Translations under genes and position numbers: made by a program
The notes under the pieces: model-generated
Seen by the model: the letters and a program-made list of their open reading frames with translations, nothing else
What the model was told of the DNA's origin: nothing
Database searches by the model: none
Shown here: in pieces, positions 2,504-47,436 of the stretch
Layout of the letters: every line of letters begins with the position of its first letter
Position numbering within the stretch: position 1 is the first letter of the stretch
From: a virus
Length of the DNA: 52,676 nt
Direction: 5' to 3' (one strand)
Virus record (IMG/VR): IMGVR_UViG_3300007346_005272
Span: 1 to 52,676 of that record

Positions 2504-2541
2504 GATAGTATTCTACCTACTTAAAAACAAGCAATCCAGTA

Positions 2542-10808: not shown

Positions 10809-10812
10809 ATCG

Positions 10813-10998: not shown

Positions 10999-11010
10999 CT
11001 TTTATTCCTT

Positions 11011-14000
11011 TCAAGAAAATCTAGGCCACAAGCCCGTACTTAAATAAGCAAACACTGCTGCTTCCTTAATGTTGAAATTATAGCCGCCTTCAGGACGCTC
11101 CGATCTCCACGGCTTCAAAAGATCATTTGATAACCAGTTAACAGGTCTAGAGCTACCTAACACAACAATCTCAGATTCTTCACCCTGACCTAAAGAACCA
11201 GTAGTAATACGAGGATTATCAAGATATCCGATACCCATAATAAGTTGAGCAGGAACCACATCATGCTGAAGAACGTGGGTAGGCTCACCCAGTTCACCAA
11301 CCTCTGCCATCTGTTCTATCCTATCGTCAGCAGTACCATACTTATTGCCAGCAAACCCCAAAGCAATCCCTATGTCGGTACTCCACGACTCCAAACCGCG
11401 AGTCACAGATGGTTCACGTCCACTAGGAAGCCCGTCGTCATCCCCAACAACATTCGGGATGTAAGTACCTCTAAACACACTAAGTTCAGTAATACCCGCA
11501 TCTTCCAAGTATTTCTGTGTTGTGGAATACTGACCTCTAACCCAAGCATCAATAAACGGTGTCAGAAGTTCTTGAATTTCAAAAATTTCTTCTATACCGG
11601 CATCAATCTCTGAGGGTTCATGAGAAACATCAATATCAAACTCTTCTCCCAAAACTGTTTTAACACGTTCAGATAAGAAGTCCCAATGGAACACTTCACT
11701 TCGCGCTTCACCCCAATGGATTTGAATAGCTTTAGCAATCCGACTCCCCACCCATGCTTCATTCTCAGTCACTTCTTTTTCATACTCTCTCATTTGTGAA
11801 GGAGTAAAACCAGTAGTATCTCGTTGACGTGAAGTAATTAAATCATTTATTGCAGCAAAAATTTCATACGTTGCATCAGTACGTTGTTTACCAGAAAGAG
11901 AACCACCAAGCTCAAACGCTTCCTCTAGCTTTTTCTGCAACGGCAACAAATCATCCTCAGTAGACAATTCCGCCACCACCGTTTTTAATGCTTTCTGATC
12001 TTCCCTTAAATGCACACCATCCACAACATCAGCCACAGGACGAGGCTTTCCTTCATGAATATCTGGAACAGAAGAGCCAGTCAAACGATCTTTATCCCAA
12101 CCCGTCAGTTTTTCAGGCCCTGGAGGAAGCCCAAAATCTGGCGCAGACGAACGAACCGTATCCAACTCATCAAGCGTGGCAGTCATATCATCCACAATCG
12201 TGGGACGAGCTTCGCTTTGAACAATTTCTACAGCTTCAGGAATAGTACGCCACTCGCCCATTCCCGAAACCTGCCAACCGCGTGCCCCGTCAACTGACGG
12301 ATTCACCGTAACGACACCAACTTCATTAGGGTCAAGATCAGCGTACGCCTGATAATTAGGAGTCCAAAACAGAGGGTCGGGACGGTTCGGAACATTGTAC
12401 TGCCGCCAATACGAATATTCTCTATAGAAATCTCCACGCTCTTCCATCGTAGACGGCGTAGCTGATAAAAGTCTCTTTCTCTCATTTTCTGGCATGCTCT
12501 TAGTCCAGGCAGCGATCTCCGACTTCATTCGCTCCACGGCAGCTGGCCCCGTATCGTCACGGACAGCTTCACGCATTTCATGAATACCACGAACGATCGA
12601 ATCCGCAACCAACGGGTCAGTCGTAAAGCTAATAGCGTCGGATACGCCGCCGCCCAACCCTGCAGGAACTTCACCTGATTCGTCTCTTAACTGGGCACGA
12701 GTTTTAAACCCTCCATCTTGCAAACCACTCAAACCTGTAGTTACATGTAACAATCCTTGTGGAAGGTTTTCCCACATGCCTCTCTCAGCCCTAGCGGAAT
12801 AACCATACCGCTGCCACGCCTCCGACCTCTCATCATTTTCAGTACCCCAAACCTCTCTAGGGTTACCTATGTCAATCTTATTTAGTACGATAGCCCGAGT
12901 GATTTCAGCTTGCCAAGCCTTTTCGATTTCACGCCTAACTGTCATAGCCGCATCAGCGTCATCCGATGGCAGGGCATCGTAAACTGATCCAATATCAGCA
13001 AGGCCGGGTCGCTCATCTCTAGGCACGGGTAAACCATCATCAGCAATAACTTGCGTCTTAAACAACTCAGGACGCTCTCTCAATAATTCAACACCACGCT
13101 CCCATGTTACCTTCCCCTCTTCAGTATAGCCGACAGGAGGAGGCCCAGGCACCCAAAAACCGCCATCATCAGTTTCGACAACACCTCCCCCAGGAATCTC
13201 CGTAGACTCTGGAACGATATCATCAACCGACCGGGCCATAACCGAAGCCACTTCATCCTCAGCATCATCCAAATCATCAATCATTTCAGAAACAGCATCA
13301 TCCCGATCAGAACGCAACTGATCAGACAAACCACGCAACTCAGCCAAACGCTCCTTCTGCCGCAAAAACTCAGGAATCTTACCCTCATACTCGGCAAACT
13401 CTTCACGCTGACGCTCCAACCCCGCAACAGGATCAAGACCATCCAACGGCACATCATTCTCATCCATATAATCCAACAAACGCCACAACACCTGACCCGT
13501 CATCTCCGAATCAGCATCAGCCGTATGCCACGAGAAATCCTCCAACCCGAAAAACTCCTGCAACTTCTTCAACGAAGCACTACCCGGACCATCCTCAACC
13601 CCAGCACGCTTAGCAATATTGCCCAAACCCATCGTGTCAAAATACGTCACCTCATCCAAATCAAACGACGGCACACCATCAGGATCATGACGCTGACGCT
13701 CCAACTCCATACGCTTCAAATCAAACGCAGCATTATGCGCCATAAACACCACATCAGAACCATCAGAATCGCCATTAGCAAAACGCATAAACTCCTGCAA
13801 CACCGTAGGCATATCAGGCTGCTTCGCCAAAAACTCCGGAGACATAGGCTTACCATCAGCATCAATCAAATTCGCTTGAGACCAATCAGACAACTCATCA
13901 TACTCCACATTCACATACATGGAGAAACGATCAACAATCACACCATCAACATAAACCACGCCACCCAACTGAACAATACGGTCCTCATCAACCTCATCCG

Positions 14001-16863
14001 GATCCATACGCCCAGCAGTCTCCGTATCAAAAACCACCACACGCTTACCCTTAAGAAGCTGCGACACCTCTCTCCACGAAGTCGCCTCAGCCAACTCATC
14101 ACGCAAACCAGAACCAGCAAGATGCGGAGGAGGAGAGAACGGTGCCCACACCTTATCTACAAGAACACCATCTCTAAACAACTCAGGTTCGTCTACCTGT
14201 GCCTGAGCTAACTCGCCAAGAATTCTATTCTTCCGATCTTCCGACTCGGCATCAGAAAGCATTTGAGACGTGGCTGAAGGATCACTCGCAACCCTAGGAA
14301 GCAAGCTGCCACGCTGCTTCCCCTGATCTACATCCCTCACCACTCGACGGGCTTCGTAAGTGGAGTAGGCAGTATCTGCTTCTTGTCTACCTGCCAAAGC
14401 AGTCAAAGGAGGAAGGTCGTCTTCAGACCAGTCACGGTCCGTCAAAATAAACTTAAGCTCCTCAGGAATAATCTGCTTCGAATACTTGTCAAACATCTGA
14501 GGAAGATTGCTTTCTTCTCCGTCTGTACCTGCCGGAATTCTTCGCCTTCCTGTAACGTGAGCCGAAATTACTTCCGCTAAAACTTCCATGCTTTCAGTCC
14601 GCTCCATCCGCCTCTTGAGTAACGGATCTAAGCCGGGAGTGTTTTGTGAGACACCATACTTTATTTGAATATAATCATTAGGCGTATAACCCAAAATAGA
14701 AGATACGTAAGCATGGTCAGTGCTCCTCGTCCGTAATTCAAAATCTCTATTGTAAGTCTCAAGCCACGGCCTATTTTCACTTATCCACTGTTGGGGAGCT
14801 TGACGAATAGGTGAATCATTTCTAAAAATGTAATCACCATTTCTTTCTTGTCTGTCAAGCTCACGAAGAGCTTCTTGCCTACGACTTAACGTCTCTGTTA
14901 AAATAGTAACTCTACGAGCATTCTCAGGATCGTCTATCTGTTTCTGAATATTTTCGATCTCGCCCTCAAGACGTATCTTCTCTCTAAAGAAAGCATCTGC
15001 AGCCAACAAAGAATCAATCCGGTGAACCGCTTCATGCACAGCAACTTGGTCTAGAGGTGTTTCAGATAAGCCCACCTCCTGAAAATCATTACGCAACCTT
15101 CCAAGCGTAGCTAAACTCTTTAACCCCAAAGGAATATCTACACCATCAGGCCCATCATCAGGATTAAACCTCTTAATGGTACCGGCTTTCCGATCAATAA
15201 CTAAATGCTCATCTAAGCCCAACATTTGCGGAGTGAGGACTAACACGCCAGTTGCAGAATTAAACGTACCACCAATTTTATTGTCATCAAGCAGTTCAAT
15301 ACGAAGTTCTGTTGGACGATACTCAGGACTTAGACCATCTGTAGACTTTCTAATTTTACGCAACAAATCTTCATTCTCTGCACCGCCAGGAATGAAACGT
15401 AAAATGCCCTGCATTTTTTTATCTTTCAGGGTTTCCTCCGTAAACACGACTTTGATATCTTGTGGCTTAGTAACTTCTTTAAGCTCAGTTTTCAACTCAG
15501 CTAAACGTTCACGAAGCTGAGAAGCTAATGGATGTTCGCCGTCAGCCTCAAGTCTCTGAATTGCAATCTCACCTGTTTCAATGTCTCTCAAAACCTGACT
15601 AATAACATCAAAATTCTGATACTGTCCACTTAACTCACCGGCACGTTCAACTAACCGATTCTCAGGAATTATCCCCAAAGTAGAACTAAGCTCAGTAGCC
15701 TCATCAGCACGCCGTGCAGCTAAATCCGACTTTGCGCTAGCTACCGTCTGACCAATACTATCGCTACGACGCCTAAAAGCATGGCCTGTATAATATTCGT
15801 AATCTTTAAATCCGGCATTCTGTAAAAATAGCCTATCTATCAATTCGGGATTATCAGCCATGTACTGCAGCTGGTTTGCAAGACCCAAATGGGTTTCAGT
15901 GCTGCCCGTAGAAGCTGTATTCCTATCTAACCAATCAGCATGGTAACGAACCTTATCAAAATCATCAGCAGCATAAGCATTAATTAATTCTTTTATATGA
16001 TGATCGTGCCAAGTCGTCACAGGCAACGCAGCGGCCATCGCTTGTAAGAACCGAACGTCATCCTCGTCAACTGTCTCGATCATGTCTGCTACAGATCGCC
16101 TCCGTCTGCGTGCTTCATCTTCTAAAAACTTTAAGCGAGAACGAAAACGGCTAATAGATTGTCTATCGCCATCACGAAGCATAGCAGCCATACTTTCACC
16201 CAAAGTAAAGTTCGCATAGCGGTAAGAAGGAGACTCCCCGCTTCGGCCCGTAGGCTTGCCGTGTAACCGCTCTTCCATGTACTGAAACAGTGTGATGCGG
16301 TTACGACGCTCCGCAATATCTATTGCAGCTGCCCGCTTAACAGGAATATTATTTAAACCCCGTAGCCGATCTTGAGACGCTTGAGTTATTAAACCACTTT
16401 CAACAGCTTCATCCGATAAAAGGTACTCAATCTTCGGACGAAAAGCGGCAAGGGCAGCGGAACCTTTATCAGTTGACACATCCACTACATCCACATCATC
16501 AACCGCATCATCAAAACGAGCCGACTCAGCCAACGACGGCCCCAAAACCCCACGAGGCAAAATGCCCTGAGACTCCAAAAGCGAAGGCGAATCATCAGCC
16601 AACGTCCCCAAAGATCCACCCAACGTAGTAGAATCAGTATCTCTAAACGACGGCGTAAAATCCCAAACAGACCCGTCAGCACGAACAAACTCTACACGAC
16701 CACGATCAACCTGACCGTACTCGCTCCAAATCTCACCCGTATCAATAAAGCGCAAATACGCCCCTTTAGGGCGCTCCCAAATCGTTCCATCCTGAACAAG
16801 ACCATCAAGGTCACCGTCACGAGGAAACGGCACAAAAGGTACAACACGAGGTTTCCTAGCCAT
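11011..16863 (-). CDS. Giant 'polyvalent' protein: metallopeptidase motif, DEDDh exonuclease, two ADP-ribosyltransferase-like regions
   Basis: This 1950-aa soluble protein has no membrane segments. Domains in order: residues 15-32 hold DGDLDGLVQDGTIWERP, a motif common at the start of phage multidomain proteins. Residues ~480-800 are a metallopeptidase-like region with H610-E-A-V-H614 and a likely third ligand E764 in EVLAEVISAHV. Residues ~938-1140 are a DnaQ-like DEDDh 3'-5' exonuclease (D946/E948 in VVFDTETAG, D1048 in AHNAAFDLK, H1113/D1118 in HTADADSE). Residues ~1370-1550 look like an ADP-ribosyltransferase (ART)-like fold (H1373 in LLHVTTGL, ISFTTD, GEWR 1536-1539). Residues ~1790-1910 match an R-S-E ART (R1798 in VFRGTY, S1826-W-S-T-D, E1896-S-E1898). 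Such chains are described as polyvalent proteins ejected with phage DNA. ATG at 16863 follows TATAAT by 7 nt, suggesting a leaderless mRNA. Confidence 0.85.
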   Translation of the reverse strand: MARKPRVVPFVPFPRDGDLDGLVQDGTIWERPKGAYLRFIDTGEIWSEYGQVDRGRVEFVRADGSVWDFTPSFRDTDSTTLGGSLGTLADDSPSLLESQGILPRGVLGPSLAESARFDDAVDDVDVVDVSTDKGSAALAAFRPKIEYLLSDEAVESGLITQASQDRLRGLNNIPVKRAAAIDIAERRNRITLFQYMEERLHGKPTGRSGESPSYRYANFTLGESMAAMLRDGDRQSISRFRSRLKFLEDEARRRRRSVADMIETVDEDDVRFLQAMAAALPVTTWHDHHIKELINAYAADDFDKVRYHADWLDRNTASTGSTETHLGLANQLQYMADNPELIDRLFLQNAGFKDYEYYTGHAFRRRSDSIGQTVASAKSDLAARRADEATELSSTLGIIPENRLVERAGELSGQYQNFDVISQVLRDIETGEIAIQRLEADGEHPLASQLRERLAELKTELKEVTKPQDIKVVFTEETLKDKKMQGILRFIPGGAENEDLLRKIRKSTDGLSPEYRPTELRIELLDDNKIGGTFNSATGVLVLTPQMLGLDEHLVIDRKAGTIKRFNPDDGPDGVDIPLGLKSLATLGRLRNDFQEVGLSETPLDQVAVHEAVHRIDSLLAADAFFREKIRLEGEIENIQKQIDDPENARRVTILTETLSRRQEALRELDRQERNGDYIFRNDSPIRQAPQQWISENRPWLETYNRDFELRTRSTDHAYVSSILGYTPNDYIQIKYGVSQNTPGLDPLLKRRMERTESMEVLAEVISAHVTGRRRIPAGTDGEESNLPQMFDKYSKQIIPEELKFILTDRDWSEDDLPPLTALAGRQEADTAYSTYEARRVVRDVDQGKQRGSLLPRVASDPSATSQMLSDAESEDRKNRILGELAQAQVDEPELFRDGVLVDKVWAPFSPPPHLAGSGLRDELAEATSWREVSQLLKGKRVVVFDTETAGRMDPDEVDEDRIVQLGGVVYVDGVIVDRFSMYVNVEYDELSDWSQANLIDADGKPMSPEFLAKQPDMPTVLQEFMRFANGDSDGSDVVFMAHNAAFDLKRMELERQRHDPDGVPSFDLDEVTYFDTMGLGNIAKRAGVEDGPGSASLKKLQEFFGLEDFSWHTADADSEMTGQVLWRLLDYMDENDVPLDGLDPVAGLERQREEFAEYEGKIPEFLRQKERLAELRGLSDQLRSDRDDAVSEMIDDLDDAEDEVASVMARSVDDIVPESTEIPGGGVVETDDGGFWVPGPPPVGYTEEGKVTWERGVELLRERPELFKTQVIADDGLPVPRDERPGLADIGSVYDALPSDDADAAMTVRREIEKAWQAEITRAIVLNKIDIGNPREVWGTENDERSEAWQRYGYSARAERGMWENLPQGLLHVTTGLSGLQDGGFKTRAQLRDESGEVPAGLGGGVSDAISFTTDPLVADSIVRGIHEMREAVRDDTGPAAVERMKSEIAAWTKSMPENERKRLLSATPSTMEERGDFYREYSYWRQYNVPNRPDPLFWTPNYQAYADLDPNEVGVVTVNPSVDGARGWQVSGMGEWRTIPEAVEIVQSEARPTIVDDMTATLDELDTVRSSAPDFGLPPGPEKLTGWDKDRLTGSSVPDIHEGKPRPVADVVDGVHLREDQKALKTVVAELSTEDDLLPLQKKLEEAFELGGSLSGKQRTDATYEIFAAINDLITSRQRDTTGFTPSQMREYEKEVTENEAWVGSRIAKAIQIHWGEARSEVFHWDFLSERVKTVLGEEFDIDVSHEPSEIDAGIEEIFEIQELLTPFIDAWVRGQYSTTQKYLEDAGITELSVFRGTYIPNVVGDDDGLPSGREPSVTRGLESWSTDIGIALGFAGNKYGTADDRIEQMAEVGELGEPTHVLQHDVVPAQLIMGIGYLDNPRITTGSLGQGEESEIVVLGSSRPVNWLSNDLLKPWRSERPEGGYNFNIKEAAVFAYLSTGLWPRFS

Positions 16864-16870
16864 ACTATCT

Positions 16871-16876
16871 ATTATA
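16871..16876 (-). promoter_or_regulatory. -10 box for leaderless transcription of the 1950-aa gene
   Basis: TATAAT on the minus strand is followed by exactly 7 nt and then the ATG at 16863. There is no ribosome binding site before that ATG. No good -35 box is seen at 16-18 bp. The same spacing occurs at 20643, 21067 and 24240. Confidence 0.5.
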
Positions 16877-16888
16877 GCTCAACCGGAC

Positions 16889-17761
16889 CTACGAAGACGG
16901 CGTGACCTCTAACGAACTTGCAGAATATGCGCCAGTACCGCCAGCATTCAAAGCAGCCACCCGGAACTTGTAACCAGTCCCGTTCGTCAAACCAGTCACC
17001 CGATAGAAACCCTCGACCGAACTTGTATCGGCAACAGCAGTAGACCACGTGTCACCATCATCAGTGCTTTGCTGAATCTTGTAACCAGTGATCTCATGAA
17101 CACCACCATTCCACGTGGCCTCAAGCCAAGACAGCGTAACTTCAGTATCGCCCGCAACCGCTACAAGGTTTGTGGGGGCATTCGGAGTAGCCGCCATCTT
17201 TTCTACAGTAATCTCAGAGGACTGCATAGTGCCTAGTGCAGTGCGGGTCAGAGTTTCTTCAAGGGTCAAAGAGTAACCTATGTATGACCCTGCCAGTAGT
17301 CGCTCACCTTTAATCAAAGTTAAATCAGAGAACTGCTCTACAATAGTCCCCTCATCAATCTTTGGCGAGCACGATACGTCAGTATCGTAAGCAGAAAGCG
17401 AGGGATGATCCATCAATGCTTCACGAACAACAGTTGTCAAGTTATCTCGCTGATCGGTGACAGTCTGAGCACCCGCATCCCGAACCCAAACATAGGTACG
17501 CATATCGTACACAACCTGCAAATCCGGATCAAACCCCGCCGTATAACCAGCTCGATTAATAGAATCAGTGCTCATGACAATAGTAATAATCGTCGGCCAT
17601 CTATCAAGCTGAAACGGCTCATGGCTAACATACAAACGAGGATCAGGCAACTGACTGGCGCTCAGGTTCCAATGGTTCCTGTAAGCAACCAGCCTAGAAG
17701 GCAGATCTGCTGCTAAATAATTGGTAACAAACTGTTTAGCCAAACGGCTTCCACTCATCAT
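16889..17761 (-). CDS. Tail terminator-like protein fused to a fibronectin type III domain
   Basis: This 290-aa protein has two parts. Residues ~1-190 (LAKQFVTNYLAADLPSRL, YDMRTYVWVRDAGAQ, a DNLTTVVREALMDHP helix) have the size and pattern of tail terminator/gpU-like proteins, encoded after the neck proteins. Residues ~193-288 are a classic FnIII domain: APTNLVAVAGDTEVTLSW, ITGYKIQQSTDDG, YRVTGLTNGTGYKFRVAALN. Ig-like and FnIII add-ons on virion proteins are usually surface exposed and may help adhesion. Start ATG at 17761 (Met-Met). It is encoded in series with the tail-completion protein and precedes the 1950-aa gene. Confidence 0.7.
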   Translation of the reverse strand: MMSGSRLAKQFVTNYLAADLPSRLVAYRNHWNLSASQLPDPRLYVSHEPFQLDRWPTIITIVMSTDSINRAGYTAGFDPDLQVVYDMRTYVWVRDAGAQTVTDQRDNLTTVVREALMDHPSLSAYDTDVSCSPKIDEGTIVEQFSDLTLIKGERLLAGSYIGYSLTLEETLTRTALGTMQSSEITVEKMAATPNAPTNLVAVAGDTEVTLSWLEATWNGGVHEITGYKIQQSTDDGDTWSTAVADTSSVEGFYRVTGLTNGTGYKFRVAALNAGGTGAYSASSLEVTPSS

Positions 17762-17772
17762 AATTCAAACAC

Positions 17773-18396
17773 CTACTGTCCTAACAAATCGTTGCCTCTG
17801 TACGTCTTGCTCCAATACGGAACATTAGCACCAGCCATACCCGTCTTCTTCAACCAAGCATAGTACTTGCCTACCGAACCACCGTAAATAACTCTCTCGG
17901 CAATAGCAGAACCCAGCTTTGAAGAGAACTGACGGCCCTTCGGCTCGCCAAACTTAAACAAGAACGGTCGAGCAGGCATCTTCCTTGTACCGTATTGAAT
18001 GAAACTTGCATACGGAACAACTCGACCATCAATCCCATCGCTCGTTAAATCCGTACCAAACTTCATACTATGCGACTTATACTCTCTAACCGCTCCTCGT
18101 GCATTGTCAACAGTAAGGCTGCGTCTTAAATCGCCAGTTCTAACAAGCACACCTTTATTACCATATCCCTCTTCTATTTTCCATGCAACAGTTTCAGGCG
18201 CAAGTACGGTCCATCTACCGCGACCATTATTACGAAAATCTTCCCGAATCTGACGTTTGACCTCTTTAGCTGCCCACTTAAACTGCGACTTGAAACCTTT
18301 TGCAGAACGGCGACGCATAGCATTAAAATGCTTAGTCATTTCCCGCTTGTCAACTTTGACACTAATACTAAGAGCTGGTTGCCTTCTCCGAGCCAT
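17773..18396 (-). CDS. Tail completion/virion morphogenesis protein (gpS/HK97 gp10-like)
   Basis: This 207-aa basic protein carries the pattern of the virion morphogenesis family: GRWTVLAPETVAWK (~60), VLVRTGDLRRSLTV (~83-96), YASFIQYGTRKMPARPFLF (~130-148). The TG-x-LR-x-S and Y-x-x-x-x-x-YGT...PARPFL elements are diagnostic. The ATG at 18396 is preferred to the upstream TTG at 18405, which would overlap the connector gene. The role is joining head neck to tail. The C-terminal ~50 residues (AWLKKTGMAGANVPYW...) look like an added extension. Confidence 0.8.
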   Translation of the reverse strand: MARRRQPALSISVKVDKREMTKHFNAMRRRSAKGFKSQFKWAAKEVKRQIREDFRNNGRGRWTVLAPETVAWKIEEGYGNKGVLVRTGDLRRSLTVDNARGAVREYKSHSMKFGTDLTSDGIDGRVVPYASFIQYGTRKMPARPFLFKFGEPKGRQFSSKLGSAIAERVIYGGSVGKYYAWLKKTGMAGANVPYWSKTYRGNDLLGQ

Positions 18397-18397
18397 C

Positions 18398-19039
18398 TTA
18401 AGCAACCCTCACACGGCGATACTTTCTAAGAGTAAACAATTCCCTATCAGAAAAACCAGTCTCCAAAGGCGCAACATTCCTCGTCGTCAAATCCTTCAAA
18501 CCAACCACATCATCATGCATATTCTGCATCTCACGAGTAGCTGCACGCAACATCAAAATCTTAAACGCCTTAATGTTCGGACCATCCAACCCCGCCGTAT
18601 ACGTCACCTCAATACGATCATTCGCAAACGCATTAAACAAATCAATACCATAATCCCGAGTCACATAATCACGCTCCGCAACCTGAGCCGTCGCCGTAGC
18701 AGACGCAGAAGCAGGCGTAATCGAAACAGAAGACACCGAAACAACCGGACTATTATCCAAATACAACGTATACATAGGCGTATAAATAATGCCAGGAGAA
18801 GTCAACGTGGAAGCAGGATCAGTAGTGTAATTGTAATAGTACTGCTGGTTTACAACGCCCCTGCCCACATCGGGCACACGATACGTTTCCGTAAACTCTG
18901 TCTGTTCAACAGGGCGACGCAAATACGCCTCTAACTCAGACTGCAAGCCTTCAATAATAAATGCTGCGGCGTCTTCCTGAGTGTTCGTGAGCGTAATGTC
19001 CATATAGGTAGTAATATCAGAGACTGTAATAAGAGCCAT
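18398..19039 (-). CDS. Head-tail connector/adaptor protein (gp6/gp15-like)
   Basis: This 213-aa protein starts MALITVSDITTYMDI, then ...DAAAFIIEGLQSELEAYLRRP, the helical head-tail adaptor beginning seen in HK97 gp6/SPP1 gp15-type proteins. A beta-rich insertion (YYYNYTTDPASTLTSPG) follows, then IEVTYTAGLDGPNIKAFKILMLRAATREMQN, also typical. ATG at 19039 with GAGGGAG upstream. It forms the dodecameric ring under the portal. Its gene is separated from the portal and capsid genes by the non-structural island. Confidence 0.78.
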   Translation of the reverse strand: MALITVSDITTYMDITLTNTQEDAAAFIIEGLQSELEAYLRRPVEQTEFTETYRVPDVGRGVVNQQYYYNYTTDPASTLTSPGIIYTPMYTLYLDNSPVVSVSSVSITPASASATATAQVAERDYVTRDYGIDLFNAFANDRIEVTYTAGLDGPNIKAFKILMLRAATREMQNMHDDVVGLKDLTTRNVAPLETGFSDRELFTLRKYRRVRVA

Positions 19040-19054
19040 TGTTACCTACTCCCT

Positions 19055-19420
19055 CTAGAACGGCTCGCCAGACGGCGGTGAAGGATTTCTACGACCACGC
19101 CCAGGAGGACGTGAGGCTTTCTGACCTTCTTTGAGCTTCTGAAGAAAGGCGGCAACATTGCTTCTAGCCGCTCTAAGCTGAGCTAGTGTAGCGCCAGTCA
19201 AGTTAGCGCCCTTCACATTGTATTTCTCCCGAAAAGCTTTACGGGCATTTTTCATCTTGATGGCGTTATCAAAAATTCTCTGCTGAGTGTCTGTAAGCTT
19301 CCCATTGTCCTTTCGCTTTTGTCTCAGACCTTTAAGAATGCTATTAAGTTGCCGGTCGCTTTTACCTTCCAACATGTCGTCAGGTTTAACTTTACCGACA
19401 CCTTCAAGAACTACAGCCAT
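19055..19420 (-). CDS. Basic helical protein, unknown function
   Basis: This 121-aa, strongly basic protein is helix-rich in the middle (LNSILKGLRQKRKDNGKL, FDNAIKMKNARKAFREKYN, LAQLRAARSNVAAFLQKL). It has a Pro/Arg-rich disordered end (RPPGRGRRNPSPPSGEPF). It is encoded just before the connector gene. A DNA- or capsid-associated role is possible from charge and position only. The 62 bp before its ATG (19420) hold a GATAC/GTATC repeat but no clear promoter. Confidence 0.6.
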   Translation of the reverse strand: MAVVLEGVGKVKPDDMLEGKSDRQLNSILKGLRQKRKDNGKLTDTQQRIFDNAIKMKNARKAFREKYNVKGANLTGATLAQLRAARSNVAAFLQKLKEGQKASRPPGRGRRNPSPPSGEPF

Positions 19421-19482
19421 AACAGCCCCAATCAGAAAACAATACTGATACTATGATACCGTATCCGACAACAGCATTAATC

Positions 19483-19953
19483 CTAATCTGCCATTTGCTT
19501 CAAAAAGCTACCGTCCAACAGCATCAAACCAATCGTGGAATAGCCAACAATGTCCAGATAGGTGTCCTCCACCGCCTCATTCTCTGGCAGACGGCCAGAA
19601 TCTAGCAGATTTTCCAAACGTGCAACCTTGTCATGGAGACGCACAATCAGACCACGGTGCCCGAACCTGAGAATGTTTTCAGAACCATAATCTCGCTGCT
19701 TATTACAGAGCGTTTGCCACACAAAATCCTTGTCTAGCGAAATATCGGCATGCTTGGTCATTGCCGCTAGCTGAAACCAAACCTCAGGATCAACCAACTC
19801 CTTATTGCCGACAAAATAAGTCTCAATCAGCGAATCAATATACTCCCGAATGTCTTCAACCGTAGTTACCTGAGACGACTCGGCCACCCACACGCTGTCA
19901 ATATGTGTCAACGCATGATCTTCCCACGTCAACAAATCGTCAATTACGGTCAT
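19483..19953 (-). CDS. Nmad1/DUF1599-like nucleotide-metabolism protein
   Basis: In this 156-aa protein the C-terminal two thirds (LCNKQRDYGSENILRFG, HRGLIVRLHDKVARLENLL, NEAVEDTYLDIVGYSTIGLM) match the pattern of DUF1599, the nucleotide modification associated domain 1. That family is alpha-helical and related to MazG/dUTPase-type NTP pyrophosphatases; the acidic residues in EDTYLDI are probable metal ligands. The ATG at 19953 overlaps the stop of the two-TM gene (ATGA). It could sanitise or process nucleotides during phage DNA synthesis. The family call is good; the substrate is unknown. Confidence 0.72.
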   Translation of the reverse strand: MTVIDDLLTWEDHALTHIDSVWVAESSQVTTVEDIREYIDSLIETYFVGNKELVDPEVWFQLAAMTKHADISLDKDFVWQTLCNKQRDYGSENILRFGHRGLIVRLHDKVARLENLLDSGRLPENEAVEDTYLDIVGYSTIGLMLLDGSFLKQMAD

Positions 19954-20264
19954 GACTTCGCACCCTTCGACATGCTGAGCTTAATTGAAAACAGAATCCA
20001 GAGAATAGATGAAACTAGAAAAGCGTCCGTGTAGCCGATGCCGGGGCGGAACGCCATCAAGTTAGGCCACGCAGAATTAGCAATGCTGTTCAAAAACATC
20101 AGACCCAAAGCGCCCGTGCCTGCAAGAAAAGCAAAACCGAAAATACTCTGCAAAACCGTGATAAGCACTGCCTGCTTGACTACCTGCTGAACATTCTCCT
20201 CCAACTCTGTCGAAAGCTTACCGGTGAACCGGCCCCAATCTTCAGCGCCTTGCCTATTTACCAT
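19950..20264 (-). CDS. Two-TM membrane protein, possible holin
   Basis: A 104-aa protein with a charged amphipathic N-terminus (residues 1-28), two hydrophobic segments (~31-55 VLITVLQSIFGFAFLAGTGA, and ~80-97 AFLVSSILWILFSIKLS), and a short basic tail (MSKGAKS). Size and layout suit a class II-type holin, but it is 11 kb away from the endolysin gene. Its operon partners are a regulator-like and a nucleotide-metabolism protein, so another membrane role is possible. Its start overlaps the end of the upstream gene by 11 nt. Confidence 0.6.
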   Translation of the reverse strand: MVNRQGAEDWGRFTGKLSTELEENVQQVVKQAVLITVLQSIFGFAFLAGTGALGLMFLNSIANSAWPNLMAFRPGIGYTDAFLVSSILWILFSIKLSMSKGAKS

Positions 20265-20643
20265 TTTCGTATTCCTTTACTATCTGGTGAACCCGCTGAC
20301 GGGACAACCTATACCGAGCACCGATCTTAGCTAACGTCTCACCGTTATAGTACTCGCTATAAATCTGACTATTTCTTTCTGCAATAAAATCCTTCGACTT
20401 CGGTCCCGGTCTGACAGGACCCCAAGTCCAAGAAGAAAGACTTTCTAACAACTGAATCCGGTTAGTAGCCAATGCGTTCTGCTTATATCTCGTCCGCATA
20501 TAACTAACCCAATTGCCTAAACTGATACATTCCCCCGAGTCTAAAAACTCTACGTGATCTGTAGGCACAATAGCGTCACCATAGCGTTTCTCATATGCGC
20601 ATAGGGCCTCGTAATGCTTATGCCATCGCTGTTCATGCCTCAT
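20254..20643 (-). CDS. Helicase-associated domain protein with C-terminal HTH
   Basis: In this 129-aa protein, residues ~5-75 match the helicase-associated (HA) repeat: W..HYEALCAYEKRYGDA, ISLGNWVSYMRTRYKQNAL, IQLLESLSSWTWG. Residues ~88-127 form a sigma-70 region 4-like helix-turn-helix (YNGETLAKIGARYRLSRQRV followed by HQIVKEY). This pairing suggests a DNA-binding regulator or sigma-like factor. The gene has the best promoter in the window (TTGACA-17-TAAGAT) and its ATG lies 6 nt after the -10 box, so it is likely a leaderless, constitutively expressed early gene. Function beyond DNA binding is inferred. Confidence 0.72.
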   Translation of the reverse strand: MRHEQRWHKHYEALCAYEKRYGDAIVPTDHVEFLDSGECISLGNWVSYMRTRYKQNALATNRIQLLESLSSWTWGPVRPGPKSKDFIAERNSQIYSEYYNGETLAKIGARYRLSRQRVHQIVKEYENGK

Positions 20644-20649
20644 AGTGGT

Positions 20650-20678
20650 ATCTTAGTAAAGCCCCACCGCCATGTCAA
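20650..20678 (-). promoter_or_regulatory. Consensus sigma-70-type promoter giving a leaderless mRNA
   Basis: Minus strand: TTGACA (20673-20678), 17-bp spacer, TAAGAT (20650-20655), then 6 nt and the ATG at 20643. The expected transcription start coincides with the ATG. There is no ribosome binding site. Confidence 0.85.
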
Positions 20679-20692
20679 GTAAACCCCATAAA

Positions 20693-21067
20693 CTAACGTG
20701 GCTTATACAAGCTAGCGTTAGCTACCTCACCAGCTAAAGACTTAATAGTCTTGTACGCATCTTGACTGCCAACCCGTTCGGACCAATCCACGATGTCTTC
20801 CCCAACAAACATCTCAATAGCTTCCCAACACCTGATAAAGTTAGCTCTTTTGTTAGCAGGGATATTATCTAAAAGTTCGTCAAAATTATTAGACAGGTTG
20901 CGCTCGGGCATCAAACCAACAAAGACAGCAATCGCTGCAGGCAAAGAAAGCCGCTTCTCATCATCTATCGGAACAGTCTCCGCTAAGCCATGCTTACAAC
21001 AAGCTGCAACCATAAGCAACTCATGCTGCACACCATGAAGCCTTAAATCTCTCAAAGAAAAAGCCAT
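20693..21067 (-). CDS. Conserved-looking protein of unknown function
   Basis: A 124-aa protein from ATG 21067 (MAFSLRDLRLHG). In the same frame the reading extends up to a GTG at 21154 (153 aa), but that extension would run through a strong terminator hairpin. The ATG at 21067 sits 6 nt after TATGAT, so I prefer it. It is helical with two cysteines in AACCKHG and a long LSLPAAIAVFVGLMP stretch. There is no recognised family. It lies between the RNR gene and the HTH gene. The 153-aa form remains possible if the upstream promoter is used. Confidence 0.6.
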   Translation of the reverse strand: MAFSLRDLRLHGVQHELLMVAACCKHGLAETVPIDDEKRLSLPAAIAVFVGLMPERNLSNNFDELLDNIPANKRANFIRCWEAIEMFVGEDIVDWSERVGSQDAYKTIKSLAGEVANASLYKPR

Positions 21068-21073
21068 ATGCAT

Positions 21074-21103
21074 ATCATAACGTAAAAAGCGGGGTTCAGT
21101 CAA
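21074..21103 (-). promoter_or_regulatory. Promoter overlapping a terminator, for the gene at 21067
   Basis: Minus strand: TTGACT (21098-21103), 18-bp spacer, TATGAT (21074-21079), 6 nt, then ATG at 21067. The -35 box lies in the loop and 3' arm of the terminator hairpin, so one transcript ends where the next begins. Confidence 0.75.
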
Positions 21104-21119
21104 ACTGACCAAACCCCGC
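21084..21119 (-). terminator. Intrinsic terminator downstream of the RNR leader region
   Basis: On the minus strand, arms GCGGGGTT...CAGT and ACTGAACCCCGC (21104-21119 and 21089-21100) pair around a 3-nt loop with a 4-nt bulge. They are followed directly by TTTTT (21084-21088). Confidence 0.85.
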
Positions 21120-21165
21120 CCTAGACGTGCGATTGCTTTTACGGCTACCGGCACGTTAGCCGATA

Positions 21166-21196
21166 ATCACAATCTCCTCCTTCGGGGTTAGTCAAA
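21166..21196 (-). promoter_or_regulatory. Second TTGACT promoter / possible antiterminator strand
   Basis: TTTGACTAACCCCG (21183-21196) nearly repeats the terminator's 3' arm region (TTTGACTGAACCCCG). It reads as TTGACT-18-TGTGAT (-10 at 21166-21171), placing a transcript start near the GTG at 21154. In RNA it could also pair with the terminator's 5' arm. AAGGAGGAG directly follows it but has no well-placed long ORF. Confidence 0.45.
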
Positions 21197-21267
21197 TTTG
21201 CCGGTACACAAATACTTTAACTTCCCAAATTACGCCAGATTGCAACTTTGCATATTATAATATCCCG

Positions 21268-21393
21268 TTATCTACCGCACCATGTTAGGAGTTTGTCGAT
21301 ATCCATTGCAGGCGTCTTCTCAATGCCGCCCACAACAATATTACAAATGTGGCACAGCAGTCCACGCACCTCGCCAGTATCGTGGTATAGCAT
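21268..21393 (-). pseudogene. Remnant or mini-gene of an endonuclease VII-like nuclease
   Basis: A 41-codon frame from ATG 21393 (in a stop-bounded frame that begins about 6 codons after the RNR stop) encodes LYHDTGEVRGLLCHICNIVV and ends in TWCGR. This matches the H-x-TG-x-VRGLLC-x-x-CN core of T4 endonuclease VII-like recombination nucleases. The first zinc CxxC and the full DHDH motif are missing (only YHD remains), so it is likely a decayed 3' fragment. The rest of the 21074-21428 gap holds the leader, terminator and promoters described separately, and an AT-rich 12-bp palindrome with TATAAT at 21252-21263. Confidence 0.55.
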
Positions 21394-21428
21394 CAGAATG
21401 TACTGGTGGCGCTTACTACGCCACTAGG

Positions 21429-23378
21429 TCATCTCACGGGACAACTTCCCGTTGAGCATTCGGCGTCAAACTCATCGTCCGACATGATCGTGGAACCTGA
21501 CAGCTTCTCACCAAGCTGTGACGTAGTGCTGAGCACATGCTCGTACTCTTCCTTAGTCAACTCGCCCATCGGGGCCTGATCGAAACCATGCTCGCTGTGC
21601 AGCAAGAACGAAACGGACTTCATCTCGCTCCAATGCTCCGCAAGGTACTCACGAATACCATCAAGTTCTTCGCTCTTGTAGTAGACAGTCACCGAAATGG
21701 CGTTGTCTGACCACACCTTCTGGAGACGACGAACAAGGTCCATCTGCTCAATCGCAGTCATGTCCTTAGCTTCGATCGTCCCGTCAGGGAACGCACACGG
21801 GAACTCTACAACAACAGTCCGGTCATCTTCTGAGCCATCAAAGTTGCGGAGAGGCTCAACGTAGAAGCCCTTCGACTTGCAGTAGTTGACAAGAACGTCG
21901 GTGGAAGCCATACGCATACGCTTCACAAAGTACTGGCTAAAGCCGGGGTGAACGCCAGGGGTTACACCCGGAAGAAGGCTCAGCGTGCCAGAAGGCTTGA
22001 TCGTGGTAAGACGTACAGACTCAGGCCAGCCACGCTCTTCTGACCACTCGGCATCAAACTCACGCAGAGCGACATAGGTGTCGTCCAGCCAATCAATCTT
22101 TTCCATGGCCTGCGTCACGCCAGTGATACCTAGGCCGAGACGCATGTTTGTTGACGTGATCTTGTCTGAAGCAGGGTCAAGGTAAGACAGCGCCGCTGTC
22201 GCCTTCTGGACCTTGTACAGCAACTGAGACACGTCCTGAAGCTCTTCCGACGAGTCAATCATCGGCAAGAAAATCTCAGACAAGTTACAAGACTCACGGT
22301 TAGCCAACGGGATTTCAGCGCAAGGGTTGACGCCCACAATCGACGGATCGGGACGCTCTTCGCCCATACGCCCAAACTGGCGTGAAGCTTCGAGGTTGAA
22401 GAACCCGTACGGCTCACCATTACCCTTGTAGCCTTCCCAAATAAGCTCCGGCATGTCCTGCATCTGTTCCGGAGAAACGAAAACAGTGTTGTTTGACATG
22501 GCTCGCTCAATCGGAATATCGCCAAGGTCCCAACGCTTCGCCATCAGGTAATCTTCATCGTCTAGACGGCCAACAGCAATTTCAGCGCTGCGGCGAACGT
22601 TACCGGCGACAACGATAGAGCCAATGATGTTCATGCAGTCAAGAACCTCAACTGAAGTCATCGTGCGACCAACCGCACCGTCAAGAACGGCACAAATCTT
22701 CTCAATACCCGAAACGAGAATATCGGGACCTGAAGCAGTGCCGCCGAACGTCTTAATAGGTACACCCGCCTTGCGGATCAGGTGAGTAGCGTACGTCATC
22801 TTACGAGGATTGTCGTCGTCGCCCAAGTAGCACTCAAAGACCTTCCGGACTGCTTCGCCCCAACCCTCACGGGTATCAGGCACTATGAAATCAGAATCGT
22901 CAGCGTCATGATGCTCAACCCAAGCTGAACGAACAACACCCAGACGCTCAGGCTTATCGCAAGAGAAGCCCACACCGCCGCCAAGCATCAGCCGCTCTAC
23001 GGCCCAAGAAAAATCCGTGGGCTTCTGAACATCAACAAACCAGCAGTTGACCAGACTATCGCCACCCAAACGCTTGTTGTTCGGGGTACCCATCTGCCAA
23101 AGCATTCGGCCAGCAACGGAAGCCTTCAAGTTGAACAGATAGTCATAGAGGCGGACAGCCTCATCTTCCGACAACTGCGCCCCAATATCCTGAGCGCCGT
23201 TAACGACACGCTGAATCGTTTCGTGCCATTCCTCAGTACGAACAATTGTGTCGCCCTCAAAAATAGGGCGAGCATAGGTCCGCTTGTAAACAATATAGCC
23301 TAATCCGTTAAATCCCCACGGAGGCATCTTATCAGCATATGAGGCGGCATGGTCGTCGGAAATAAAAAAGGGGTCCAC
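21429..23378 (-). CDS. nrdJ: Adenosylcobalamin-dependent class II ribonucleoside-triphosphate reductase
   Basis: This 649-aa monomeric RNR of the Lactobacillus leichmannii type reduces ribonucleotides to deoxyribonucleotides using coenzyme B12. Visible active-site residues: N-terminal C112 (LVNCWFVD); N351-P-C353-A-E355 and C364 in NPCAEIPLANRESCNLSE; SGTLSLLPGVTPGVHPGFS near 475; and the C-terminal redox pair C641/C646 in CSTGSCPVR. The NGEPYGFFNLEASR region (~320-333) is also family-typical. The start is GTG at 23378, supported by AAGGAGA 8 nt upstream. It is slightly shorter than the ~740-aa bacterial enzyme. It lies in the non-structural island with an Nmad1-like protein. The host or phage must supply B12. 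Confidence 0.95.
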   Translation of the reverse strand: MDPFFISDDHAASYADKMPPWGFNGLGYIVYKRTYARPIFEGDTIVRTEEWHETIQRVVNGAQDIGAQLSEDEAVRLYDYLFNLKASVAGRMLWQMGTPNNKRLGGDSLVNCWFVDVQKPTDFSWAVERLMLGGGVGFSCDKPERLGVVRSAWVEHHDADDSDFIVPDTREGWGEAVRKVFECYLGDDDNPRKMTYATHLIRKAGVPIKTFGGTASGPDILVSGIEKICAVLDGAVGRTMTSVEVLDCMNIIGSIVVAGNVRRSAEIAVGRLDDEDYLMAKRWDLGDIPIERAMSNNTVFVSPEQMQDMPELIWEGYKGNGEPYGFFNLEASRQFGRMGEERPDPSIVGVNPCAEIPLANRESCNLSEIFLPMIDSSEELQDVSQLLYKVQKATAALSYLDPASDKITSTNMRLGLGITGVTQAMEKIDWLDDTYVALREFDAEWSEERGWPESVRLTTIKPSGTLSLLPGVTPGVHPGFSQYFVKRMRMASTDVLVNYCKSKGFYVEPLRNFDGSEDDRTVVVEFPCAFPDGTIEAKDMTAIEQMDLVRRLQKVWSDNAISVTVYYKSEELDGIREYLAEHWSEMKSVSFLLHSEHGFDQAPMGELTKEEYEHVLSTTSQLGEKLSGSTIMSDDEFDAECSTGSCPVR

Positions 23379-23505
23379 AGTACGTTCTCCTTGTGGTGTA
23401 GTGATGTTCTGAAAAGAGGTGGTTTTAGTATTCTAGGGGGGTTGACGTATCTTCCGGCGTCAAGTTATCACGAGATTGGAAGAAATCAAACCTATTTGTC
23501 ACAGA
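23379..23505 (-). promoter_or_regulatory. RNR leader with TTGACG...CGTCAA inverted repeat
   Basis: The 127-bp gap contains an inverted repeat TTGACG-N10-CGTCAA (23442-23463) and TAGAAT (23430-23435) on the minus strand. The spacing from TTGACG to TAGAAT is 22 bp, too long for a standard promoter, so the repeat may be an operator. No cobalamin-riboswitch features were recognised. Confidence 0.35.
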
Positions 23506-24240
23506 TTATTCTGTCAGTTCAGCTAGCCGCCTAGCTAAATCTTCTCTGTTGGAGAACAACAAGAAGATGCCCGCCGCTTGAGTATTTATGGAAAGAACTC
23601 CATCTGATTCGTTATCTAAATAGATGTTAAACAAACCAACTTCTGCAAGCTTTAACAAAATTCCAATCAGTAACAAATCATCTAGAGGGATATTCTTACT
23701 AGCCTTCAAGTATTCGACTAGGAACCCTATCTTAGTGGATGTCTGCCCCATAGTCAACAAGGCTTTCAATATCTCTCCAGAAATAGTTTCCCACTCACCA
23801 AACAAAGCCAACGAAGGCCGAACAGCGGCGTATCTAAACATGGAAGAAGACCTTGCCGACAAGCACACAGCCGCATCCAACGCAGCACCATTCGACTCGT
23901 TCACAGCAAGAAATAACACCCCATTGTCCTGCAACTCTAACGCTTCCAGAGACTGACGATCATACAAACAGTCAACCAAACAAAACTCGCTCGCCACACC
24001 AATAACAGCCTCAGTTTCACCCAACGAATACATATCTTCTCTGGAATCTTTATTCGCAACAGCATGCATCAACAACAACAGATCAAACTTTTCGTTGTCA
24101 ACCAGACCATTGCGGGTAACAAGATATTCCACAACATTCGTCAACCCGTACAAAAGAAACGGATCAATCGCCTCCAACAAATCAACATCATGCTGAGTCC
24201 ACACAGGAAACGGAATGTCGTCGTCATCGAATATAGGCAT
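23506..24240 (-). CDS. Unknown helical protein, leaderless gene
   Basis: A 244-aa acidic, leucine-rich protein with many helices (VDLLEAIDPFLLYGLTNVVE, FDLLLLMHAVANKDSRED, LDDLLLIGILLKLAEVGLF). There are no membrane segments or known catalytic motifs. The ATG at 24240 lies 6 nt after TATAAT (extended TGTTATAAT) and has no ribosome binding site. Directly upstream is the terminator of the capsid operon, so it heads its own transcript, probably with the RNR gene. I do not recognise a family. Confidence 0.7.
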   Translation of the reverse strand: MPIFDDDDIPFPVWTQHDVDLLEAIDPFLLYGLTNVVEYLVTRNGLVDNEKFDLLLLMHAVANKDSREDMYSLGETEAVIGVASEFCLVDCLYDRQSLEALELQDNGVLFLAVNESNGAALDAAVCLSARSSSMFRYAAVRPSLALFGEWETISGEILKALLTMGQTSTKIGFLVEYLKASKNIPLDDLLLIGILLKLAEVGLFNIYLDNESDGVLSINTQAAGIFLLFSNREDLARRLAELTE

Positions 24241-24246
24241 GCCCTT

Positions 24247-24255
24247 ATTATAACA
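24247..24255 (-). promoter_or_regulatory. Extended -10 promoter giving a leaderless mRNA
   Basis: On the minus strand TGTTATAAT (TGn-TATAAT) lies 6 nt before the ATG at 24240, right after the capsid-operon terminator. No good -35 box, which extended -10 promoters often lack. Confidence 0.65.
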
Positions 24256-24288
24256 AAGGACCCCTCAACCAAAGCCGAAAGGTAAATA

Positions 24289-24320
24289 AGAAAACCCCCG
24301 GCCCAAACGGACCGGGGGTT
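24289..24320 (-). terminator. Intrinsic terminator after the major capsid gene
   Basis: Perfect 9-bp arms AACCCCCGG/CCGGGGGTT (24293-24301 and 24312-24320) are followed on the minus strand by TTTTCTTATTT. Confidence 0.92.
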
Positions 24321-24354
24321 CTCAACTTATCCAACTACCCCGAAGGGACTAGGA

Positions 24355-25644: not shown

Positions 25645-25722
25645 GTTTATCTCCTTAAGGTATTTAACATGTTTTACTGTTTAATGACAGGCGACCCAAC
25701 ACAATGTGGTAACACCGGTCAA

Positions 25723-25751
25723 ATATTATGCTATCATCAACGTAAAGTAAA
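25723..25751 (-). promoter_or_regulatory. Candidate promoter of the major capsid gene
   Basis: Minus strand TTTACT (25746-25751), 17-bp spacer, TAATAT (25723-25728), about 80 nt before the capsid ATG. The 186-bp gap 25645-25830 holds this, the AAGGAG site, and a short CAATAG/CTATTG inverted repeat; no terminator is obvious. Confidence 0.5.
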
Positions 25752-43957: not shown

Positions 43958-44485
43958 TCACAGCGACTCGGGATCGCCCGTCGGTCGCTCAATCTTAACG
44001 CTCTCTCCTGTTGCCGATTCAATCGGCACCCAGGCAGGCGAATACTTATGTGCTTTAATCTTACGCATCTTGATTAAAGAACCTTCCATGAGCAACATAA
44101 ACTCATCATCATCTAAGCCTAGCTGATCTTGGAAATCTTCACCATCAATATCGTTATCTAAAAACAACTCTCGCAAAAGCTCTGACAAGAACTTATTGAC
44201 TACAACGCCACGGTTCCGGTTCAGGTTCACGTGGAGTATCGCTGCCTCAACATCATCCACGTCTACCTTTACAATAGGGACTTCTTCTAGCTCTAGAAGC
44301 TTAGCAATCTCCCAACGATGGAACCCATCAATGATACATGCAGTAGATGCTTGACATACAATTGGTTGAAGTATGCCAAACTTTTCAACAGAGGTACGCA
44401 ATCTATTGAAGTCCGGTGAAACAACATAGTTCACTGAACCCCAAAAAGAAGGCTGCAATTTATTTGGAGAAACTGAAATGTACAT
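43958..44485 (-). CDS. ParB/IbrB-like nuclease-domain protein
   Basis: In this 175-aa protein, residues ~25-105 form a ParB-type N domain: LRTSVEKFGILQPIVCQ, then IIDGFHRWEIAKLLELEEVP with the G-x-HR motif near 53-56, and HVNLNRNRGVVV. It lies 4 nt after the PAPS-reductase-like gene. This pair (ParB-like plus PAPS reductase-like) is the IbrB/IbrA arrangement known from phages and enterobacteria. No centromere-like repeats are near, so partition is unlikely. Confidence 0.8.
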   Translation of the reverse strand: MYISVSPNKLQPSFWGSVNYVVSPDFNRLRTSVEKFGILQPIVCQASTACIIDGFHRWEIAKLLELEEVPIVKVDVDDVEAAILHVNLNRNRGVVVNKFLSELLRELFLDNDIDGEDFQDQLGLDDDEFMLLMEGSLIKMRKIKAHKYSPAWVPIESATGESVKIERPTGDPESL

Positions 44486-47427: not shown

Positions 47428-47436
47428 GTCGCTATT

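What the first reader, a model, noticed from the sequence alone, without database searches (positions are those of the whole stretch)
16861..24256. Leaderless promoter class: -10 box exactly 6-7 nt before the ATG
Four genes have the pattern: TTGACA-17-TAAGAT-N6-ATG (20643), TTGACT-18-TATGAT-N6-ATG (21067), TGTTATAAT-N6-ATG (24240) and TATAAT-N7-ATG (16863). None has a ribosome binding site, while late structural genes around them mostly do. This suggests a separate translation mode for a set of genes in this phage, as is common in actinobacteria.
Basis: seen in the sequence. Interest (0 to 1): 0.72.

Follow-up and report, generated by a model that had tools for sequence, protein, structure and literature searches.

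The report
Conserved leaderless gene starts in phage
A family of uncultured phages keeps the promoter of several genes jammed right in front of the start codon, so their messenger RNAs very probably begin with the start codon itself and lack the usual ribosome-binding leader; this is a known way of making protein, here supported by strong conservation, in a virus whose host is not identified.

Summary
The four -10-box-to-ATG arrangements are present as described. At gene starts they exceed chance: TANNNT lies 6-7 nt before 9 of 44 starts, about 2 in shuffles, 0 of 2000 as high. The class is larger than reported: 2503, 44485 and 47427 join 16863, 20643, 21067 and 24240. Two further hits (10808, 30936) stay unresolved; about two are expected by chance.

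Relatives decide. Among orthologue clusters below 80% identity the box at gap 5-7 is kept in 14/14 (20643), 15/16 (24240), 9/10 (21067), 5/5 (44485), 8/11 (16863), 3/3 (2503) and 1/1 (47427). Six control genes give 0/20 (capsid), 0/17 (RNR), 0/16, 0/14, 1/24 and 1/11. For 20643, 13 of 14 clusters keep TTGACA and TANNNT at exact spacing while spacer and discriminator diverge. The base before the start codon is a pyrimidine in 103/110 leaderless-type upstreams, 251/503 in others, as expected if RNA starts at the A.

Leaderless sigma70-type promoters are therefore very likely: a known mechanism. No 5'-end data exist; an actinobacterial host is plausible but unproven. In passing: a conserved RNA, probably with a pseudoknot and bearing AAGGAGG, lies just upstream of 21067.

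The parts
20254..20643 (-). Leaderless gene: HA domain plus C-terminal HTH (Mor / sigma70 region-4 like), 129 aa
   Evidence: Pfam HA 2.5e-14; Mor and Sigma70_r4 just under their cut-offs; conserved from residue 3-7 on in 28 orthologues
20650..20655 (-). -10 box TAAGAT, N6 before ATG
   Evidence: TANNNT at gap 5-7 in 30/30 distinct orthologue upstreams, 14/14 clusters <80% aa
20673..20678 (-). -35 box TTGACA, 17-nt spacer
   Evidence: >=5/6 at spacer 17-18 in 29/30 relatives
20693..21067 (-). Leaderless gene, 124 aa, no family match in Pfam or PHROGs
21074..21079 (-). -10 box TATGAT, N6 before ATG
   Evidence: 16/18 orthologue upstreams, 9/10 clusters
21089..21119 (-).
   Evidence: folded, coordinates; GGGG invariant and CCCC arm (near-)invariant in 27 relatives
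23506..24240 (-). Leaderless gene, 244 aa, predicted winged-helix-like fold
   Evidence: model pLDDT 87.9; residues ~143-234 align to winged-helix proteins, Z 8.2-9.6 in the 50 rows shown; Foldseek none at E<=0.001
24247..24252 (-). -10 box TATAAT (preceded by TGT), N6 before ATG
   Evidence: 22/26 orthologue upstreams at gap 5-7, 15/16 clusters
24290..24323 (-). Predicted terminator hairpin after the capsid gene, upstream of the 24240 promoter
   Evidence: 15-pair stem; perfect GC-rich stem in 19/26 relatives
11011..16863 (-). Leaderless gene, 1950 aa, with RNase_T exonuclease domain
   Evidence: Pfam 6.6e-11
16871..16876 (-). -10 box TATAAT, N7 before ATG
   Evidence: 9/13 orthologue upstreams, 8/11 clusters
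1280..2503 (-). Leaderless gene missed by reader: tail/endolysin-like with peptidoglycan-binding domain
2510..2515 (-). -10 box TAGAAT, N6 before ATG
   Evidence: 4/4 relatives, 3/3 clusters
43958..44485 (-). Leaderless gene missed by reader: ParB-like
   Evidence: ParB_N 3.6e-8; PHROG ParB-like 4.4e-21
44492..44497 (-). -10 box TAAGTT, N6 before ATG, overlapping the end of the upstream gene
   Evidence: 10/10 relatives, 5/5 clusters
44516..44521 (-). -35 box TTGACT, 18-nt spacer, inside the upstream coding sequence
   Evidence: TTGACA-like at spacer 17-18 in 10/10 relatives
47077..47427 (-). Leaderless gene missed by reader, 116 aa, unknown function (phrog_1389)
47434..47439 (-). -10 box TAGAAT, N6 before ATG
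   Evidence: 8/8 relatives, but a single cluster at <80% aa
47457..47462 (-). -35 box TTGACG, 17-nt spacer
   Evidence: 8/8 relatives

Best explanation
At least seven genes of this phage (starts 2503, 16863, 20643, 21067, 24240, 44485, 47427) are transcribed from sigma70/sigmaA-type promoters whose -10 element ends 5-7 nt before the ATG, so RNA synthesis begins at or next to the A of the ATG and the mRNA has no 5' leader. Shown: the boxes, their fixed spacing, their conservation against diverged surroundings, and the lack of Shine-Dalgarno sequences. Inferred: use of host RNA polymerase, start at the A, initiation on the 5'-terminal AUG by intact 70S ribosomes (recalled mechanism), and that each such gene heads a transcription unit. 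Two of them follow directly on a predicted terminator (24240 after capsid, 21067 after a non-coding RNA), which gives a compact terminator-promoter-gene junction.
For: Gap-specific enrichment at gene starts in the window. Orthologue upstreams with TANNNT at gap 5-7: 30/30 (20643), 16/18 (21067), 22/26 (24240), 9/13 (16863), 4/4 (2503), 10/10 (44485), 8/8 (47427); the 37 genes outside the class (7534 set apart too) give 12 of 503, among them 0/47 capsid, 0/54 RNR. Strong SD 0 in six of the seven, 3/13 for 16863. Clusters below 80% aa: 14/14, 9/10, 15/16, 8/11, 3/3, 5/5, 1/1. For 20643, 13 of 14 clusters have both boxes at exact spacing; mean pairwise column identity over all 14 is 0.84 (-35) and 0.90 (TA..T) against 0.36 (spacer), 0.41 (discriminator) and 0.41 (further upstream). 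TTGACA-like -35 at spacer 17-18 in 29/30 (20643), 10/10 (44485), 8/8 (47427), control 12/503. Gene-free count of TTGAC-N17-19-TANNNT-Ng-ATG in the viral loci: 79 distinct matches at g=6, 16 at g=7, at most 28 at any other g from 0 to 30. -1 pyrimidine 103/110 against 251/503; ATG 109/110 against 413/503; the 110 include 11 of gene 7534. Separate anchor: a conserved non-coding RNA has TANNNT at gap 6-7 before its conserved GTACCGG in 27 of 27.
Against: No transcript 5' ends. Gaps vary: over 110 rows with a box, 85 at gap 6, 17 at 7, 8 at 5; all 8 at gap 5 are 24240 relatives, so some mRNAs may start 1-2 nt off the A. No -35 was found for 2503, 16863 and 24240 and only 5/16 for 21067. For 44485 and 47427 the -35 lies in upstream coding sequence, and in several relatives of 44485 the TA of the box is also a stop codon, so part of that conservation has another cause. 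47427 is one cluster. Relatives are not independent. The first Met of the protein alignments is partly fixed by my way of choosing start codons, so it is weak evidence. Starts of four isolate phages show no clear excess, so the class is not a general trait of phages that share single genes with this one.
Confidence: 0.87

Rival explanations
1. The -10 boxes are real promoters, but transcripts carry very short leaders (1-5 nt), so start selection is near-leaderless and not exactly at the A.
For: Gap varies from 5 to 7 between relatives.
Against: Gap 6 in 85 of 110 rows; -1 pyrimidine in 103/110 with A at +1 fits a start at the A.
Confidence: 0.08
2. Chance or compositional -10-like sequences in AT-rich intergenic DNA; the genes are read from upstream transcripts and translated without SD by coupling or unstructured leaders.
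For: Without restriction to gene starts the pattern is not significant in the window; about two of nine hits are expected by chance; several other genes here lack SD too.
Against: Box and spacing kept in 14/14 clusters of 20643 against 0/20 for capsid; two sites follow predicted terminators that would hinder read-through.
Confidence: 0.03
3. The true start codon lies downstream, after an internal SD, and the conserved ATG is only the 5' end of a short leader.
For: For 24240 the first ten residues are predicted with low confidence and the first invariant residue is W14. Not searched systematically.
Against: For 20643 H3, R6 and W7 are (near-)invariant, for 21067 L5, and the majority sequence of 24240 begins MPIF.
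Confidence: 0.02

Closest known systems
TA-led (leaderless) genes of Actinobacteria and Deinococcus-Thermus (Zheng et al. 2011, PMC3160421, passages seen; Zhong et al. 2025, PMC12340547, passages seen)
   Same: TANNNT about 12 bp upstream of the start (counted from the first T), read as a -10 box that gives leaderless mRNA. The 2011 table gives an average of 19.2% of genes in Actinobacteria; here 7 of 45 (16%).
   Different: Here in a phage of unknown host; here several sites also keep a strong TTGACA at 17-18 nt.
Predicted leaderless promoters of mycobacteriophages: Cluster O (PMC4351075, one passage seen) and Adephagia gene 90 (PMC11373665, one figure-legend passage seen)
   Different: In the passages seen, a few promoters per phage; the sites are not homologous to these.
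Thermus phage phiYS40 middle/late leaderless mRNAs (review PMC3594737, passages seen)
   Same: A set of phage genes without leaders beside genes with leaders.
   Different: The passage reports a temporal class with IF2 up and IF3 down; here neither is known, and the set mixes tail/lysis-like, ParB-like and regulator-like genes.
Leaderless cI and cro mRNAs of phage PY54 (PMC4488713, passages seen, one from the abstract)
   Same: mRNA 5' ends found at the AUG of phage regulator genes (RACE).
   Different: Immunity-region repressor genes of a temperate lambda-related phage; I recognised no such region here.

Membership tests
TA-led (leaderless) genes in the sense of Zheng 2011 | TANNNT about 10-12 bp upstream of the start codon | tested here: met
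   Seven genes, conserved in relatives
TA-led (leaderless) genes in the sense of Zheng 2011 | No Shine-Dalgarno sequence | tested here: met
   0 strong SD in orthologues of six of seven genes; 16863 has 3/13
Leaderless mRNA | Transcript 5' end at, or within a few nt of, the start codon | not testable with these tools
   No RNA data; indirect support from -1 pyrimidine and ATG bias
sigma70/sigmaA-type promoter | TTGACA-like -35 at 17-18 nt from the -10 | tested here: inconclusive
   Met for 20643 (29/30), 44485 (10/10), 47427 (8/8); 21067 5/16; 2503, 16863 and 24240 none
Actinobacterial phage | Host is an actinobacterium | tested here: inconclusive
   Capsid 48% to Brevibacterium phage Cantare; terminase 41% to Gordonia phages (up to 314 bits) but 44% to methanogen phage psiM2 (307 bits); RNR best to an uncultured spring virus (48%) and a Maribacter phage (45%); genome hits are five contigs in MAGs labelled Phycisphaerae, Gammaproteobacteria and Verrucomicrobiales
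phiYS40-like leaderless temporal class | Shared temporal expression with altered IF2/IF3 balance | not testable with these tools
   Needs an infection time course

The most novel reading that the evidence does not exclude
The phage family may tilt host translation towards its own leaderless mRNAs: the RNA that sits between RNR and leaderless gene 21067, with its own promoter-like box and terminator, carries AAGGAGG in 34 of 34 distinct intergenic segments and could titrate the anti-SD of 16S rRNA, handicapping SD-led (host) mRNAs while leaderless ones are spared. Against it: the phage's own capsid and other genes are strongly SD-led, and in the nested fold the AGGAGG is only about half unpaired (mean 0.48 over 33 sequences).
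Probability: 0.04. Interest if true: 0.85.

Novelty: new member of a known kind. Interest (0 to 1): 0.34.

Why it matters
Comparative footprinting shows that an uncultured phage family keeps a leaderless gene class at nearly single-base spacing, for two of the genes across proteins as little as about 36-45% identical, and that one gene (tail assembly chaperone, 7534) appears to have changed between a leader-bearing and a leaderless start at the same locus. This helps to place start codons and promoters in such genomes and points to hosts that translate leaderless mRNAs well. It is not a new mechanism.

Tried and rejected
Pattern search over the whole window without gene starts: not significant. 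General promoter scan of 10000-26000: no excess over shuffles (19 found, 17.5 expected). Starts 10808 and 30936 have TANNNT-N6, but relatives are few and nearly identical there (2/2 and 2/3): not claimed. Isolate comparison at annotated starts with 60 nt upstream (DSL-LC01 89 starts, Cantare 55, P23-45 91, a Manatee Spring virus 72; first 50 kb of each): 6, 1, 3 and 4 starts at gap 6-7, background 1.76, 0.68, 1.20 and 1.68 per gap; no clear class. Host: one genome-contig scan with the capsid gave five contigs in MAGs of three labels, perhaps misbinned virus. No close phage DNA for 10000-34000. The proteins of 24240 and 20643 have no tblastn match in the phage collection (E limits 0.01 and 0.001). 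Rfam: nothing at gathering score in the window; two weak hits below gathering for 21060-21300. Foldseek in PDB for 24240 and 20643: none at E<=0.001; for 20643 the top rows include Mu C and Mor, at E 0.1-0.6 only. A terminator before leaderless genes as a general rule: rejected; a perfect GC-rich stem is frequent only for 24240 (19/26), then 21067 (5/18), 7534 (3/19), RNR (4/54), 10471 (1/29) and 19953 (1/28), none in the other genes tested. A short ORF after the SD of the RNA: up to 9 codons in 32/34, but the rule is loose and by eye a 4-codon ORF is broken in some relatives; not claimed.

Controls against a clean split: the box at gap 5-7 also occurs in 2/39 (17761), 3/42 (19039), 1/28 (19953) and 2/28 (20264), and in 1/24 and 1/11 clusters of 20264 and 19039. 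For 7534 the box is in 11/19 rows but only 2 of 6 clusters. A first column-identity figure for 20643 was made on rows chosen for having both boxes, so I replaced it by the unfiltered one.

Rows dropped in the orthologue counts: hits whose match begins after residue 10, without a start codon within 8 codons, with under 60 nt upstream, or with the same last 40 nt upstream as another row. Misses by eye: for 24240 L014, L013, L031 and L032, where the assigned start looks one or more codons off; for 21067 L029 (same cause) and the distant L038. The capsid scan kept 80 of 294 relatives. In one search two of 29 sequences (chance matches in coding sequence) were removed; the 27 had been found with a pattern asking for GTACCGG and AGGAGG, so only their upstream boxes are an unbiased count. 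Paper lists were cut at 25 of 38 and 25 of 41. Seen but hardly used: PMC5312081 and PMC10986495 (passages), PMC7148126 (outline and abstract).
Full report
What was checked. The window is the whole of a 52,676-base virus record, which may itself be a fragment. Of the 45 genes I picked from the ORF list, 44 are on the - strand.

Is it more than chance? Not if the pattern is searched blindly. At 44 gene starts it is: TANNNT per gap is 0-3 at every gap from 0 to 49 except gap 6, where it is 8. Gaps 6 and 7 together give 9 genes (2503, 10808, 16863, 20643, 21067, 24240, 30936, 44485, 47427) against 1.95 in dinucleotide shuffles, 0 of 2000 as high; boxes of at least 5/6 give 5 against 0.41; scan-corrected, 1 of 1000.

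Relatives. IMG/VR scans with the capsid (80 loci kept of 294 relatives) and RNR (60 loci, 3 of them shared), two more scans for the window's ends (20 and 6 loci) and five MAG contigs gave 168 loci. Orthologous starts were found by tblastn. The box at gap 5-7 is present in 30/30 (20643), 16/18 (21067), 22/26 (24240), 9/13 (16863), 4/4 (2503), 10/10 (44485) and 8/8 (47427) distinct upstreams. The 37 genes outside the class (7534 set apart as well) give 12 of 503, including the two unresolved genes 10808 (2/2) and 30936 (2/3): capsid 0/47 (SD 46/47), 8898 0/28 (SD 28/28), 10471 0/29 (SD 23/29), RNR 0/54 (SD 33/54). Clustering at 80% amino-acid identity keeps the contrast, with 1/24 and 1/11 in two of the six controls. 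For 20643, 13 of 14 clusters carry both boxes at exact spacing; the fourteenth, distant L038 (40% identity), has only the -10. Over all 14, columns of the boxes are 0.84-0.90 identical, spacer and discriminator 0.36-0.41. That is what selection on a promoter at fixed distance to the ATG predicts.

Where RNA starts. Pyrimidine at -1 in 103 of 110 leaderless-type upstreams (11 of them from 7534) against 251 of 503 others, and ATG in 109 of 110 against 413 of 503, fit a start on the A. That bacterial polymerase prefers pyrimidine at -1 and purine at +1 is recalled. The -35 at spacer 17-18 is present in 29/30 (20643), 10/10 (44485), 8/8 (47427) and 11/11 (7534 relatives with a box), in 5/16 for 21067, and in none for 2503, 16863 and 24240; at 24240 in the window a TGT precedes the -10, as in extended -10 promoters (recalled).

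A switch. Gene 7534 (tail assembly chaperone, PHROG 6.4e-21) has a weak AAAGG-type start in the window and its nearest relatives, but TTGACA-17/18-TANNNT-N6/7-ATG in 11 of 19 distinct upstreams, 2 of 6 clusters. The order of the neighbouring genes found is the same in the loci listed.

What the genes are. 20643: HA domain plus Mor/sigma70-region-4-like HTH. 24240: predicted winged-helix-like protein; best Z 9.6 for residues 143-234, which is only a shared common fold. 2503: peptidoglycan-binding/tail-endolysin-like; 44485: ParB-like; 16863: very large with an exonuclease domain. So the class is not one function; I infer that its members head transcription units, two of them right after a predicted terminator.

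Host. Capsid and terminase have actinophage relatives at 41-48%, but the evidence is mixed. The fraction of leaderless genes (7 of 45) resembles the Actinobacteria average of 19.2% in Zheng 2011, which is suggestive only.

Known or new. Leaderless genes are well described in bacteria and in some phages (passages). Eight full-text searches that combined leaderless with phage, mycobacteriophage, actinophage, Thermus, Cappable-seq or related words listed no paper that I recognised as dealing with this family; the library is partial and two lists were cut. The finding is a new member of a known kind.

In passing. Between RNR and 21067 the relatives carry a conserved non-coding unit: AAGGAGG in 34 of 34 and GTACCGG in 33 of 34 distinct segments cut out by the flanking genes alone, a box at gap 6-7 before GTACCGG (27/27), and a terminator-like hairpin abutting the leaderless promoter. 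A pseudoknot of three helices, which I chose by eye from these sequences, pairs 91.0% of cells against 88.1% in shuffles (0/500) and 11-44% when slid, with 13 double-changed cells against 4.6 (0/500); the stricter counts are weaker (5 pairs with a double change against 2.5, 22/500; 12 further pair types against 9.8, 41/500), and helix 2 has no double change. The window copy folds at z -3.7, terminator included. No Rfam family fits. This may deserve more attention than the finding itself.

Changes after checking. The confidence was lowered from 0.88 to 0.87 because the first-Met argument proved partly circular.

Noticed in passing
21085-21207, - strand (box at 21214-21219): Conserved ~120-nt non-coding RNA candidate between RNR and gene 21067: own -10-like box, AAGGAGG in 34/34 segments, probable pseudoknot with some compensatory changes, ends in a terminator-like hairpin that abuts the leaderless promoter; no Rfam family. 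The core pattern occurs in 40 stretches of IMG/VR DNA.
   Followed up: partly
7016-7534, - strand, and relatives such as L086, L096, L094: Tail assembly chaperone gene: weak SD-like start in the window clade but TTGACA-TANNNT-N6/7-ATG in 11 of 19 distinct relative upstreams, 2 of 6 clusters.
   Followed up: partly
upstream of 21207, - strand; relatives listed: Recurrent AAGTTGCA...TGCAAGTT-like repeats (inverted in several relatives) upstream of the RNA's box, and a further TATTATAAT; possible operator. By eye only.
   Followed up: no
L103-L106: The RNR match spans about 900 nt more than in most relatives (10001-12859 in L104-L106; 2-2650 for residues 72-649 in L103), suggesting an insertion such as an intein or intron.
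   Followed up: no
upstream of 52645 orthologues, e.g. L158, L159, L161: By eye, -35/-10-like boxes some tens of nt before an AAGGAG and ATG: a leader-bearing promoter in the same genomes, so both kinds of start may coexist.
   Followed up: no
about 21270-21428, - strand, and L007: The stretch before the RNA in the window looks like a remnant of an HNH-like gene that is longer in L007; judged by eye and recall only.
   Followed up: no
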